This document shows, piece after piece, positions 59,884 to 63,564 of a DNA stretch of 64,000 bases. Within the stretch, counting starts at the first letter, position 1, and every line of letters starts with the position of its first letter. The notes below the pieces were generated by a model that saw only the letters and a program-made list of their open reading frames with translations, ran no database searches and was not told where the DNA came from. This DNA comes from Arthrobacter sp. AQ5-06 (GTDB lineage: Bacteria; Actinomycetota; Actinomycetes; Actinomycetales; Micrococcaceae): NCBI RefSeq assembly GCF_003287955.1, contig NZ_QMKP01000004.1, positions 215,132 through 279,131 on the forward strand, written 5' to 3'. The position numbers and the translations under genes were made by a program.

Positions 59884-62800
59884 ATGGCCCAGCCCATCCT
59901 CACAGCCACACTGAGCGCCGTCCTTCGCGAATGGCTTCCGCGCCAGCGGTGGTTCCCCGTGAAGACAGCCGATTTTTCGCTGGAACAGGCAGGCAGCCTG
60001 AGCCTCGAGGATGCCGCCGGGCAGGCGCGGCTGGAGATATTCCTGCTGGCTGTTTCCTCCCGGACGGCCGACGGCGGACTCCGGACTGACGTGGTCCAGG
60101 TCCCGCTGAGTTACCGGGCGAGTCCGCTTGCCGGAGCAGAGCGGGCACTGGTCGGCCAGGCTCCCGAGGCCGGCATGGCCTGGATCTACGACGCCGTGCA
60201 CGATCCTTCCTTTGTGTCCTCCTGGCTGGAGCTGATCCGGTCCGAAGCAGGCTCGAGCACGGGGTCGGCGACGGGCCACCGCACCCGGTCGGAGCACCGC
60301 CTGCCTACCGCCCACGGAGTGGTCAAAGTCCTGTCCGGCGAGCAGTCCAATAGTTCGGTCATTGTTGACGACGGCGAGTCCGCGGCGATCGTGAAATTCT
60401 TCCGTGTCCTCTCTGAAGGGATCAACCCTGAGGTCGAGGTGGGGGCGGCACTGACGGCCCAAGGCACCTTCGAGGTTCCGGCCACGCTGGGGTGGGTCCG
60501 CGGGGAATGGCAAGCGCCGGCGTCATCTGGGCTCCCGGAACAGGCGCCATCGCAGGGCGAGCTTGCCGTAGCCCACGAATTCCTCGCTGGCGGCCGTGAT
60601 GCCTGGCGCATTGCCGTGGATGCCGCGCGCACCGGTGCCGATTTCACCGCCGAGGCGCATGCCCTGGGTGCTGCGACGGCCACGGTCCACCGCCGGCTGG
60701 CGGAAGCCCTCGGCACAGCGGTTGAACCGGCCCCGGGTCAGCTTATTGCGCCCGGAGTAGCCCAGCGGGTCCGGCAGGCATGGGCGGAAGCGGGTGCCGC
60801 CGTCGGGCCTTACGACGACGCGTTAGGGGCGCTGCTTGGCGAGCTCGACGGCGTGCCTGCCGGGCCCCTGCAGCGGATCCACGGCGATCTCCACCTCGGC
60901 CAGATCCTTCAGGTCCCCGGCCACGGCGGGCAGCCCGGACGGTGGGCCATCCTCGATTTTGAGGGTGAGCCACTGCGGCCCATCGCCGAACGCAACTTCC
61001 CCGATGTTCCGCTCCGGGACGTGGTGGGGATGCTGCGTTCCTTCGACTACGCGGCAGGCGCGGCAGAACGCGAATATCAGGGTGCCCGCGTTCCGGCGTC
61101 CTGGGTCGATGATTGCGCGGACGCGTTCCTTGCCGGCTATGCCGCAGTCACACCCGGCACCATCGACCGGAGTTCACCGCTCTTTGTGGCATTGTGGCTG
61201 GACAAGGCCCTTTACGAAGTCGTTTATGAATTGCGGAACAGACCTGACTGGCTGGGCATTCCAACGAATGCCTCCCGGCGGCTCCTCAGCGTTAAAGGCT
61301 CCGGCGATCAGGCCCGGGCAGCATCGGAAGGTATCAAAATGACAGGCTCAGCACGTACAGACCGGCCCCGTGTGCCTCTACACGTGGACCCGGAAACCTT
61401 GGCCCGCGTGGCGAACGGCGAACACCACGCGCCGCACTCGGTACTCGGTGCCCACCTGGACGACCATGGCCATGTGACTGTCCGGACCGTCAAGCACCTC
61501 GCGGAGGCAGTGAGCGTGGTGACTGCCGTTGGTGCAGTGCCCATGACCCACGAGAACAACGGTGTCTGGGTGGCAGTCCTGGAGCCGCTGCAGGCCGGCC
61601 ACGTGCCCGACTACCGGCTGGAGGTCACCTATCCGGGTGCCGCGCCCCTGACCGTGGACGAGCCCTACCGCTACCTGCCCACCGTGGGTGAAGTGGACCT
61701 GCACCTGATCGGCGAGGGCCGGCACGAGAAGCTCTGGGAAGTCCTGGGCGCGCACGTCCAGCACTACAAGTCCTCCCTCGGCGATGTTGACGGCGTCTCC
61801 TTTGCCGTTTGGGCTCCGAACGCGCAGGCGGTCCGCGTCAAAGGCGACTTCAATGCCTGGGACGGCCGCGAAAATTCACTCCGCTCGCTGGGATCCTCAG
61901 GCGTGTGGGAAGTCTTCCTGCCCGGTGTTTTGGCAGGGGCGTGCTACAAGTTCGAGATCAGGACCAAGGGCGGCTACTGGGTCGAAAAGGCCGACCCCCT
62001 CGCATTCGGCACCGAAGTCCCGCCGCTGACGGCGTCCAGGGTGGTGGAGCCGTCGTACGCGTTCAAGGACGCCGAATGGATGGAGGCACGCGCGCAGCGT
62101 GACCCGCACAATTCGCCGATGAGCGCCTACGAAGTCCACCTCGGATCCTGGCGCCTCGGCCTGGGCTACCGCGAGCTCGCCAAGGAGCTGGTGGACTACG
62201 TCAAATGGCTGGGCTTCACGCACGTTGAGTTCATGCCCGTGGCCGAACATCCCTTCGGCGGCTCCTGGGGCTACCAGGTGACGTCCTACTTTGCGCCGAC
62301 GTCGCGCTTTGGCCATCCGGACGAATTCCGGTTCCTGGTGGATTCCCTGCACCAGGCCGGAATCGGAGTGCTGCTGGACTGGGTCCCGGCGCACTTCCCC
62401 AAGGATGCCTGGGCGCTGGCCCAGTTCGACGGCCAACCCCTGTACGAGCACGCCGACCCGAACCTGGGCGAGCACCCCGACTGGGGAACGCTGATCTTCG
62501 ACTTCGGCCGCGCCGAGGTTCGGAACTTCCTGGTGTCCAACGCGCTGTACTGGCTTGATGAGTTCCACATCGACGGACTCCGGGTTGATGCGGTGGCCTC
62601 GATGCTGTACCTGGACTACTCACGCGAAGAGGGGCAGTGGTCGCCCAACCGCTTTGGCGGACGCGAGAACCTGGAAGCCATTTCCTTCCTCCAGGAAGTC
62701 AACGCCACCGTCTACAAGACCCACCCCGGCGCGGTGATGATCGCCGAAGAGTCCACAGCTTTCCCCGGCGTCACCGCCCCCACCAGCCACGGCGGCCTCG

Positions 62801-63564
62801 GCTTCGGGCTCAAGTGGAACATGGGGTGGATGCACGACTCCCTCAAGTACGCCTCCGAGGACCCGGTCAACCGGAAGTGGCACCACGGGACGGTGACGTT
62901 CTCCATGGTCTACGCGTTCACCGAGAACTTCCTGCTTCCCATCAGCCACGACGAAGTAGTGCACGGCAAGGGCTCCATGCTCCGTAAGATGCCGGGGGAC
63001 CGATGGCAGCAGCTGGCCAACCTGCGCGCCTTCTTTGCGTACCAGTGGGCGCACCCGGGCAAGCAGCTCATCTTCATGGGCACCGAATTCGGCCAGGAGG
63101 CCGAATGGTCCGAGCAGCACGGACTGGACTGGTACTTGGCCGAGATTCCGGCGCACCGCGGAATGCAACTCCTCACCAAGGACCTCAATGAGATCTACAG
63201 CTCGACGCCGGCCCTCTACGCGCGGGATAACGAGCCCGGTGGTTTCCAGTGGATCAACGGCGGGGATGCGGACCGCAATGTCCTGACGTTTGTCCGCTGG
63301 GACAAGGACGGCAATCCCTTGGTGTGCGCCATCAACTTCTCCGGAGGTCCGCATGTGGGCTATGTCCTCGGCGTTCCCGCTGCAGGGGCCTGGACTGAAG
63401 TGCTCAACACCGATGCTTCGGCCTATGGCGGTTCAGGAGTCCTGAATGGTGGTGAGCTGTTTGCCCTGGACGAAGGGCTTGATGGCCAGCCGGCATCGTT
63501 GAGCGTGACGTTGCCGCCCCTGGGTGCGGCGTACTTCAAGCCCGTTCCTCTCGCGGCCGGCTGA
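59884..63564 (+). CDS. glgB: Maltokinase-GlgB branching enzyme fusion
   Basis: A 1226-residue two-enzyme protein. Residues 1-485 are maltokinase (Mak/Pep2), which makes maltose-1-phosphate from ATP and maltose: WLPRQRWFPVK at the start, then LQRIHGDLHLGQILQ near 330 (catalytic Asp) and AILDFEGEPLRPIAERNFP near 355 (metal Asp). Residues 486-1226 are a full 741-residue GlgB: VWAPNAQAVRVKGDFNAWDG near 643, the nucleophile in IDGLRVDAVASMLYLDYS near 901, the acid in MIAEESTAF near 953 and ISHDEVVHGKGSM near 1020. An internal ATG (61339) with its own ribosome site lies at the junction. Confidence 0.92.
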   Translation: MAQPILTATLSAVLREWLPRQRWFPVKTADFSLEQAGSLSLEDAAGQARLEIFLLAVSSRTADGGLRTDVVQVPLSYRASPLAGAERALVGQAPEAGMAWIYDAVHDPSFVSSWLELIRSEAGSSTGSATGHRTRSEHRLPTAHGVVKVLSGEQSNSSVIVDDGESAAIVKFFRVLSEGINPEVEVGAALTAQGTFEVPATLGWVRGEWQAPASSGLPEQAPSQGELAVAHEFLAGGRDAWRIAVDAARTGADFTAEAHALGAATATVHRRLAEALGTAVEPAPGQLIAPGVAQRVRQAWAEAGAAVGPYDDALGALLGELDGVPAGPLQRIHGDLHLGQILQVPGHGGQPGRWAILDFEGEPLRPIAERNFPDVPLRDVVGMLRSFDYAAGAAEREYQGARVPASWVDDCADAFLAGYAAVTPGTIDRSSPLFVALWLDKALYEVVYELRNRPDWLGIPTNASRRLLSVKGSGDQARAASEGIKMTGSARTDRPRVPLHVDPETLARVANGEHHAPHSVLGAHLDDHGHVTVRTVKHLAEAVSVVTAVGAVPMTHENNGVWVAVLEPLQAGHVPDYRLEVTYPGAAPLTVDEPYRYLPTVGEVDLHLIGEGRHEKLWEVLGAHVQHYKSSLGDVDGVSFAVWAPNAQAVRVKGDFNAWDGRENSLRSLGSSGVWEVFLPGVLAGACYKFEIRTKGGYWVEKADPLAFGTEVPPLTASRVVEPSYAFKDAEWMEARAQRDPHNSPMSAYEVHLGSWRLGLGYRELAKELVDYVKWLGFTHVEFMPVAEHPFGGSWGYQVTSYFAPTSRFGHPDEFRFLVDSLHQAGIGVLLDWVPAHFPKDAWALAQFDGQPLYEHADPNLGEHPDWGTLIFDFGRAEVRNFLVSNALYWLDEFHIDGLRVDAVASMLYLDYSREEGQWSPNRFGGRENLEAISFLQEVNATVYKTHPGAVMIAEESTAFPGVTAPTSHGGLGFGLKWNMGWMHDSLKYASEDPVNRKWHHGTVTFSMVYAFTENFLLPISHDEVVHGKGSMLRKMPGDRWQQLANLRAFFAYQWAHPGKQLIFMGTEFGQEAEWSEQHGLDWYLAEIPAHRGMQLLTKDLNEIYSSTPALYARDNEPGGFQWINGGDADRNVLTFVRWDKDGNPLVCAINFSGGPHVGYVLGVPAAGAWTEVLNTDASAYGGSGVLNGGELFALDEGLDGQPASLSVTLPPLGAAYFKPVPLAAG
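61326..61341 (+). promoter_or_regulatory. Internal ribosome site and ATG at the Mak/GlgB junction
   Basis: GGAAGG (61326-61331) is followed after 7 nt by ATG (61339-61341). Starting here would yield a 741-residue stand-alone GlgB. Use of this start is not shown. Confidence 0.5.

What the first reader, a model, noticed from the sequence alone, without database searches (positions are those of the whole stretch)
59884..63564. Maltokinase fused to the branching enzyme, with an internal start at the seam
Known GlgE-pathway fusions usually join TreS to maltokinase. Here maltokinase is joined to GlgB instead, so one polypeptide makes the donor sugar phosphate and branches the polymer. At the exact domain boundary a GGAAGG ribosome-site-like sequence (61326-61331) lies 7 nt before ATG 61339, which would start a normal 741-residue GlgB. 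The gene may therefore give two products, or the fusion may be a recent stop-codon loss between two formerly coupled genes.
Basis: partly seen in the sequence, partly recalled or inferred. Interest (0 to 1): 0.72.

Follow-up and report, generated by a model that had tools for sequence, protein, structure and literature searches.

The report
Fused glycogen gene with inner start
In this Arthrobacter-type soil bacterium the genes for a maltose kinase and for the glycogen-branching enzyme form one uninterrupted reading frame, and a ribosome-binding site with a start codon at the join, almost unchanged in the 117 distinct gene copies compared from its genus and nearest relatives, likely lets the cell also make the branching enzyme on its own.

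Summary
In detail: 59884-63564 is one 1226-codon frame, maltokinase (Mak) then GlgB, with GGAAGG at 61326-61331 and ATG at 61339. The fusion is neither unique nor recent: NCBIfam models it (PRK14705, named only 'branching enzyme'), 205 of 206 genomes of the genus match, and fused genes occur in seven families of the order. The new part is the seam. In 117 distinct copies from the genus and its nearest relatives GAA-GG is invariant and the start codon is ATG in 116, GTG in 1. Synonymous variation falls to 0.11 of expectation at codons 480-486, the lowest of 1201 windows. Of 12 conserved in-frame ATG/GTG columns only this one has a conserved Shine-Dalgarno site. Two other genera keep different sites at their seams; in a sister genus with split genes the corresponding codon starts glgB. 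I infer a two-product gene: Mak-GlgB plus free GlgB, the only branching enzyme in each of 47 genomes checked. No protein data exist; the site is modest in the window alone (p 0.105), predicted accessibility is mixed, and some fused lineages have lost it.

The parts
56008..58089 (+). glgE (maltosyltransferase), upstream in the same cluster
   Evidence: Pfam GlgE_dom_N_S 177 bits and GLGE_C. Its first seven codons score 0.25 for synonymous variation, the lowest window of that gene.
58086..59882 (+). treS, a separate gene overlapping glgE by 4 nt (GTGA) and ending in TGA 1 nt before the mak ATG
   Evidence: TIGR02456 903 bits, cut-off 678; sequence.
59884..63564 (+). fused mak-glgB gene, 1226 codons plus stop
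   Evidence: PRK14705 2555.6 bits over its 2376 cut-off.
59884..61338 (+). maltokinase half (residues 1-485; solved Mak structure 4u94 aligns at 14-469)
   Evidence: PDB 4u94 E 8.7e-56, 4o7o, 5jy7.
61282..61356 (+). codons 467-491, the block with the lowest windows of synonymous variation in the gene
   Evidence: 117 genes, and 102 after thinning to at most 95% identity; per codon.
61298..61319 (+). possible 8-bp stem with a 6-nt variable loop just upstream of the Shine-Dalgarno site; suggestive only
   Evidence: against.
61326..61332 (+). Shine-Dalgarno-like GGAAGGT
   Evidence: GAA 117 of 117 and GGT 116 of 117; the 16S tail is present in the genome; duplex -7.1 kcal/mol.
61339..61341 (+). 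internal start codon ATG (codon 486)
   Evidence: ATG in 116 and GTG in 1 of 117 genes.
61339..63564 (+). GlgB reading frame of the predicted second product, 741 aa
   Evidence: TIGR01515 919.9 bits, cut-off 463.95; M. tuberculosis GlgB 3k1d aligns from residue 16.

Best explanation
The mak and glgB genes are one uninterrupted reading frame here, and the ribosome-binding site plus start codon kept at the join (GGAAGGT, 6 nt, ATG; 61326-61341) likely starts a second product, a free 741-residue GlgB, beside the 1226-residue Mak-GlgB fusion. The fusion would be made by ribosomes entering at mak, whose own start has almost no Shine-Dalgarno site and sits 1 nt after the treS stop, so mak translation probably depends on treS. 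The seam site would let GlgB be made in addition and in excess. Likely reason (inferred): this is the cell's only branching enzyme, and the genome also has glgC and a glgA/glgM-type gene whose glucan needs GlgB but not Mak, so GlgB supply cannot be tied one to one to the kinase. The fused form may tether some GlgB to the TreS-Mak complex (inferred). Shown by sequence: the frame, the site, its conservation beyond coding needs, and the use of the corresponding codon as glgB start in split relatives. Not shown: that either protein is made.
For: (1) In 117 distinct genes from the genus and nearest relatives the seam has GAA 117/117, GGT 116/117, ATG 116 and GTG 1 (the one change keeps a start codon), while the next-door codons 484-485 vary freely. 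(2) Synonymous variation at codons 480-486 is 0.11 of expectation (0.13 after thinning to 102 genes), the lowest of 1201 windows; median 1.02. (3) Controls: the true start of glgE gives 0.25, the lowest window of that gene (74 sequences); treS (81 sequences) never falls below 0.53. (4) Of 12 in-frame columns that are ATG/GTG in at least 95% of 102 genes, only codon 486 has a conserved Shine-Dalgarno site (96% of genes; the other 11 have 0-11%). (5) Two other genera keep a different site at their seam: 15 of 15 loci of g21 (GAGGAG..GTG/ATG) and 21 of 23 of g46 (AGGAA..GTG/ATG). (6) In fused genes outside the genus, 32 of 64 loci (29 of 56 genomes once 8 duplicate loci are removed by hand) have a seam site at p <= 0.05, about 3 expected. 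(7) In split relatives the corresponding codon is the glgB start: ATGA overlap in 4 of 4 loci of the sister genus g33; in g38, TGACATG (3 of 5 split loci) against GTGGACATG in fused L068. (8) One branching enzyme per genome in 47 of 47 and a glgA/glgM-type gene in 47 of 47 (chosen genomes); own glgC and glgA/glgM.
Against: No protein or ribosome data. The Shine-Dalgarno match is modest (-7.1 kcal/mol; p 0.105 in the window itself; 14 of 44 same-genus loci at p <= 0.05). Predicted accessibility is mixed: within 30 nt the seam is less structured than about 92% of in-gene windows (median), but in 153-nt folds the site is paired with mean probability 0.50 (random six-base stretches 0.64, a quarter of them as low) and 0.82 in the window's own sequence. 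Two loci have 10 instead of 7 nt between GAAGG and ATG. Fused lineages without a clear site exist: most of g45, L061 and L064, L312, so the internal start is not indispensable to a fusion. The 47 genomes all have one GlgB and a glgA/glgM-type gene, site kept or lost, so the supply argument does not predict who lost it. The block of low synonymous variation starts 44 nt upstream of the site, more than a plain start site needs. Two of five split g38 loci (L089, L092) do not have the clean stop-then-start form.
Confidence: 0.8

Rival explanations
1. Only the fusion is made; the seam start is an unused relic of the time when mak and glgB were separate genes.
For: The fusion is old and the original start would have been there first. 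Some fused lineages have lost it without losing the gene. In long folds the window's site is mostly paired.
Against: A relic would decay: silent changes are frequent elsewhere in the gene but almost absent at this site, and two other genera keep their own sites.
Confidence: 0.08
2. The seam is under selection for something other than translation initiation, such as an internal promoter, an mRNA processing site, a protein-binding RNA hairpin or pausing between domains.
For: The conserved block (codons 467-491) is longer than a start site, and it holds a possible stem-loop: 89.7% of cells paired, rank 2 of 36545 eight-pair geometries.
Against: No sigma-70-like promoter in the simple scan (other types not covered). 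Covariation is weak: one pair in excess (71 of 102 against 50.6 expected; 0.6% of 6582 comparable column pairs as high), and tests on independent tree pairs are too few to decide. The alifold energy of the seam is not special, and the window's fold is no more stable than shuffles (z 0.5). A start-codon-preserving change (ATG to GTG) fits initiation. Both could be true together.
Confidence: 0.09
3. Two products are made, but the fused form is only a tolerated by-product; free GlgB is what matters, and fusion or splitting drifts neutrally.
For: A one-base difference separates fused and split forms within g38, and the fused/split label needs 10 changes on the GlgB tree. The stretch between the two aligned domains varies from 27 to over 400 nt.
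Against: The frame is open in each of the 146 full-length copies read from the genus and nearest relatives and in 18 of 20 family genera read, although one indel would split it; this suggests the fused form is kept.
Confidence: 0.25
4. Assembly or sequencing error that fused two genes.
For: None found for the window.
Against: The same open frame in 146 extracted full-length copies, 117 distinct.
Confidence: 0.005

Closest known systems
[quoted passage not shown]
   Same: Same fused protein end to end, 2555.6 bits against a 2376 cut-off.
   Different: The name hides the kinase half; the table shown by the tool says nothing of an internal start.
TreS-Mak (TreS-Pep2) fusions of Chlamydiae, Pseudomonas and others
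   Same: A GlgE-pathway step fused to maltokinase (passages of PMC6509496, PMC7935935, PMC11046441).
   Different: Here treS is separate, and Mak is fused at its C-terminus to GlgB.
GlgA-GlgB fusion of Waddlia chondrophila
   Same: A glycogen enzyme fused to the N-terminus of GlgB; reported to leave the branching domain inactive (passages of PMC7935935).
   Different: Different partner. There a second gene, glgB2, exists; here one branching enzyme only in 47 of 47 genomes checked, and a start is kept at the seam.
Genes with an internal in-frame start, such as yscQ/sctQ (short YscQC)
   Same: One reading frame gives a full-length protein and a C-terminal protein from an internal start (abstract and passages of PMC4295842).
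   Different: YscQC is a structural partner of its own long form; here the short product would be a complete enzyme and the long one adds a second enzyme.

Membership tests
PRK14705 fused Mak-GlgB family | Full-length match above the curated cut-off | tested here: met
   2555.6 bits, residues 1-1220, cut-off 2376.
Maltokinase (Mak/Pep2) | Mak N-terminal cap and similarity to solved maltokinases | tested here: met
   PF18085 77.8 bits; 4u94 E 8.7e-56 with the HGDLHLGQ and DFEGEP stretches aligned.
Maltokinase (Mak/Pep2) | ATP-dependent phosphorylation of maltose | not testable with these tools
   No assay.
GlgB branching enzyme | Match above the TIGR01515 cut-off; CBM48 and catalytic domain | tested here: met
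   919.9 bits, cut-off 463.95; Pfam; 3k1d E 1.5e-292.
GlgB branching enzyme | Branching activity, in particular of the fused form | not testable with these tools
   No assay.
GlgE pathway operon | glgE, treS, mak and glgB together | tested here: met
   56008-63564.
TreS-Mak fusion | TreS and Mak in one polypeptide | tested here: not met
   treS ends with TGA at 59880-59882, before the mak ATG 59884.
Two-product gene with internal in-frame start | In-frame start codon with a Shine-Dalgarno site at a domain boundary | tested here: met
Two-product gene with internal in-frame start | Site conserved beyond what coding needs | tested here: met
Two-product gene with internal in-frame start | Ribosome-binding site accessible in predicted folds | tested here: inconclusive
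   Open in short folds, half paired on average and mostly paired for the window in longer ones.
Two-product gene with internal in-frame start | The short protein detected in cells | not testable with these tools
   No proteomic or ribosome data.

The most novel reading that the evidence does not exclude
Across the order, glgB lost its upstream stop codon but not its start. A selected intragenic initiation module (possibly with an upstream hairpin in the window's genus) inside the fused mak-glgB gene sets the ratio of kinase-tethered to free branching enzyme, and single-base indels have repeatedly switched lineages between fused and split genes without loss of either enzyme.
Probability: 0.48. 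Interest if true: 0.75.

Novelty: new variant of a known kind. Interest (0 to 1): 0.6.

Why it matters
It offers a clear comparative case of what happens to a start codon after two genes fuse: kept for function, kept as a relic, or lost. It predicts that annotation in this order misses a second protein, the free GlgB, and names the family by one of its two enzymes. It also makes a testable question of why a branching enzyme should be tied to maltose-1-phosphate synthesis at all, given the reported loss of branching activity in another N-terminal GlgB fusion (PMC7935935, passages).

Tried and rejected
Rejected: recent stop loss; assembly error; internal sigma-70 promoter (none in the simple scan; other promoter types not covered).

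Led nowhere or weak: the alifold energy over the seam is not special (-2.2 against a control mean of -2.7). It drew part of the possible stem and also three pairs between codons 467-468 and the Shine-Dalgarno bases, but in single folds that pairing is weak (mean 0.12; 0.0 in the window). The hairpin was noticed by eye in the codon table and then scanned, so it is chosen after the fact; it ranks 2 of 36545 eight-pair geometries, the pair test is at 0.6%, and independent-pair tests are underpowered. Asking whether lineages that lost the site have a second GlgB or lack glgA/glgM did not discriminate (47 of 47 alike). The AlphaFold model is thin (17 sequences, mean pLDDT 69.7, pTM 0.44); I use it only to say that protein residues 472-494 are predicted below 50. 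No fold search was run. The strength of the seam site in the window by itself is not significant (p 0.105).

Literature: by titles, abstracts and the passages opened, none of searches showed a paper on a Mak-GlgB fusion in this library; searches looked for precedents of internal starts. A published CAZyme table for Arthrobacter sp. PAMC25564 (PMC8171050, passages) lists the branching enzyme with coordinates 3696 bases long, next to treS, without remark: by length it is this fusion. Chandra et al. 2011 is not held, so a mention there cannot be excluded.

Caveats of counts: the 117 copies are 38 from same-genus genome handles and 79 named records (Arthrobacter, Pseudarthrobacter, a Micrococcaceae MAG and one Paenarthrobacter MAG), so a few may lie just outside the genus. 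One search dropped 13 partial or separate matches, and matches under 72% identity. One search's 64 loci include 8 duplicates of genomes (L027 and L135-L141). In one search the start position in g21 and g46 was chosen by site strength, so its ATG/GTG column is given by construction (not so in the window's genus, where the column comes from the protein alignment). In the tree, three of the 18 'separate' rows (L088 and L095 with masked N runs nearby, L090 a single frameshift) may be artefacts. The 20 loci were chosen mainly because their match spanned both halves, so 15 of 20 fused is not a frequency.
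Full report
Observation. The window holds a glycogen cluster: glgX (50163-52352, TIGR02100 707 bits), an alpha-glucan phosphorylase on the minus strand (53237-55882), glgE, treS and then one long frame, 59884-63564. That frame has the maltokinase cap domain, the maltokinase body (PDB 4u94 E 8.7e-56) and a complete GlgB (PDB 3k1d E 1.5e-292). treS is not fused; it ends 1 nt before the mak ATG.

Spread of the fusion. NCBIfam already has an end-to-end model of this protein (PRK14705), named only as a branching enzyme. In the genus of the window (nearest named relatives are Arthrobacter and Pseudarthrobacter), 205 of 206 genomes match and the missing one is 63% complete. 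I extracted 146 full-length copies, 117 distinct (38 from genome handles of the genus, 79 named records); none has a stop inside the frame (two show one at the C-terminal end). In the family sample 220 of 295 genomes match at E 1e-60. Of the 20 family genera in which I read both halves, 18 have fused frames (all but g19 and g33; g38, g45 and g22 have both forms), while eight further genera gave a GlgB match with no Mak in the stretch fetched. In a sample of the order (119 genomes, 105 with a match) I read 20 further loci, chosen mainly because their match spanned both halves: 15 are fused and 5 split. With two read earlier, 17 of 22 are fused, in six families other than the window's. On a GlgB tree of 93 chosen rows (75 fused, 18 not) the label needs 10 changes. 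The sister genus g33 and part of g38 sit as split forms inside fused groups. A recent stop loss is excluded for the window's lineage.

The seam. In the 117 genes codon 482 is GAA in all, codon 483 GGT in 116, codon 486 ATG in 116 and GTG in 1; the gap from GAAGG to the start is 7 nt in 115 and 10 nt in 2. The neighbours 484-485 vary widely. I measured synonymous variation as the chance that two genes with the same residue use different codons, divided by the gene-wide chance for that residue. Codons 480-486 score 0.11 (0.13 after thinning to 102 genes of at most 95% identity), the lowest of 1201 windows with median 1.02. As a positive control the true start of glgE scores 0.25 and is that gene's lowest window (74 sequences); as a negative control treS never falls below 0.53 (81 sequences). 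Of 12 in-frame columns that are ATG or GTG in at least 95% of 102 genes, only codon 486 has a conserved Shine-Dalgarno site (96% of genes at -7 kcal/mol or better; the others 0-11%). The genome's 16S tail was found. Duplex energies in the window are -9.3 for treS, -3.0 for mak and -7.1 for the seam.

Accessibility is mixed. Within 30 nt of the start the seam is less structured than about 92% (median) of windows in the same gene, and a 67-nt fold leaves the site open in its centroid. In 153-nt folds the site is paired with mean probability 0.50, against 0.64 for random six-base stretches (a quarter of which are as low), and with 0.82 in the window's own sequence. If such long folds form, passing ribosomes translating mak could open the site, which would couple the two products; this is inference.

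Other lineages. Genus g21 has GAGGAG and GTG (one ATG) at its seam in 15 of 15 loci; g46 has AGGAA and GTG (one ATG) in 21 of 23; of 17 fused g45 loci only one has a site at -7 kcal/mol or better, several others a weak GAAAG..ATG. Synonymous variation around the g21 and g46 sites is 0.23 and 0.24 of expectation, although g46 has an even lower window elsewhere in GlgB (0.16). Over fused loci outside the genus, 32 of 64 (29 of 56 genomes without duplicates) have a seam site at p <= 0.05 against control windows of the same gene, about 3 expected. In other families 7 of 17 fused loci do (two of the 17 were also among the 64), while L312 has none.

Split relatives. In the sister genus g33, 4 of 4 loci end mak in an ATGA overlap with glgB, 33-36 nt before the aligned GlgB domain (30-36 nt for the seam ATG of the window's genus). 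In g38 three of five split loci read TGACATG (mak stop, then glgB start), while fused L068 reads GTGGACATG at the same place; the other two split loci overlap further. So the corresponding codon is the real glgB start in relatives, and a one-base change can toggle between fused and split genes.

Why two products. All 47 chosen family genomes have exactly one branching enzyme, above the cut-off, and all 47 have a glgA/glgM-type gene; the window's genome has glgC and glgA/glgM on another contig. That the TIGR02149 family includes GlgM, which makes maltose 1-phosphate without Mak, is recalled; the GlgM reaction is described in a passage of PMC11046441. GlgB is therefore likely needed on routes that do not use Mak. 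In Waddlia a GlgA domain fused to the N-terminus of GlgB is reported to leave the branching domain inactive (PMC7935935, passages). If the Mak domain did the same, the free form would be essential; this is inference.

A possible extra element. Low synonymous variation begins at codon 467, 44 nt before the Shine-Dalgarno site. The stretch 61298-61319 can form an 8-pair stem with a variable 6-nt loop. In 102 genes 89.7% of its cells pair (rank 2 of 36545 geometries with 8 pairs), and one pair shows an excess of pairing (71 of 102, 50.6 expected). The window's own stem has a mismatch, its short fold is no more stable than shuffles, the alifold energy is not special, the window's longer fold pairs these bases otherwise, and tree-based tests are too few to decide. 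I call it suggestive.

Structure. A thin AlphaFold model (17 sequences, pTM 0.44) gives pLDDT under 50 for protein residues 472-494, which fits a flexible linker around residue 486.

Verdict. The fusion is known at the level of a database model, appears unremarked in a published CAZyme table (PMC8171050, passages), and is common in the family. The selected internal start at its seam is, in the papers that I could search, not described. It most likely makes this a gene with two products; proof needs protein data.

Noticed in passing
L307-L311 (downstream of mak-glgB); window end 63666-64000: A 16S-23S-5S rRNA operon lies directly downstream of mak-glgB on the same strand in 5 of 5 genomes checked, from four genera. 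This probably explains why many draft contigs end a few hundred bases after the gene. The window itself ends before any rRNA gene could be seen.
   Followed up: partly
window 59865-59886: mak has almost no Shine-Dalgarno site (-3.0 kcal/mol) and starts 1 nt after the treS stop (TGACATG), so its translation probably depends on treS.
   Followed up: partly
window 63602-63635: A strong stem-loop with a T-rich end follows the glgB stop, read by eye. The terminator scan did not list it.
   Followed up: no
L085, L089, L091, L092, L099 against L063, L066-L068 (genus g38): Fused and split mak/glgB forms coexist within one genus.
   Followed up: partly
L093, L096-L098, L101, L102: In some genera the stretch between the aligned Mak and GlgB domains has grown to over 350 nt, by eye rich in Ala, Pro and Thr, most of it downstream of the best candidate start.
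   Followed up: no
window 61282-61325: Codons 467-480 upstream of the seam site also show low synonymous variation; a start site alone does not explain this.
   Followed up: partly
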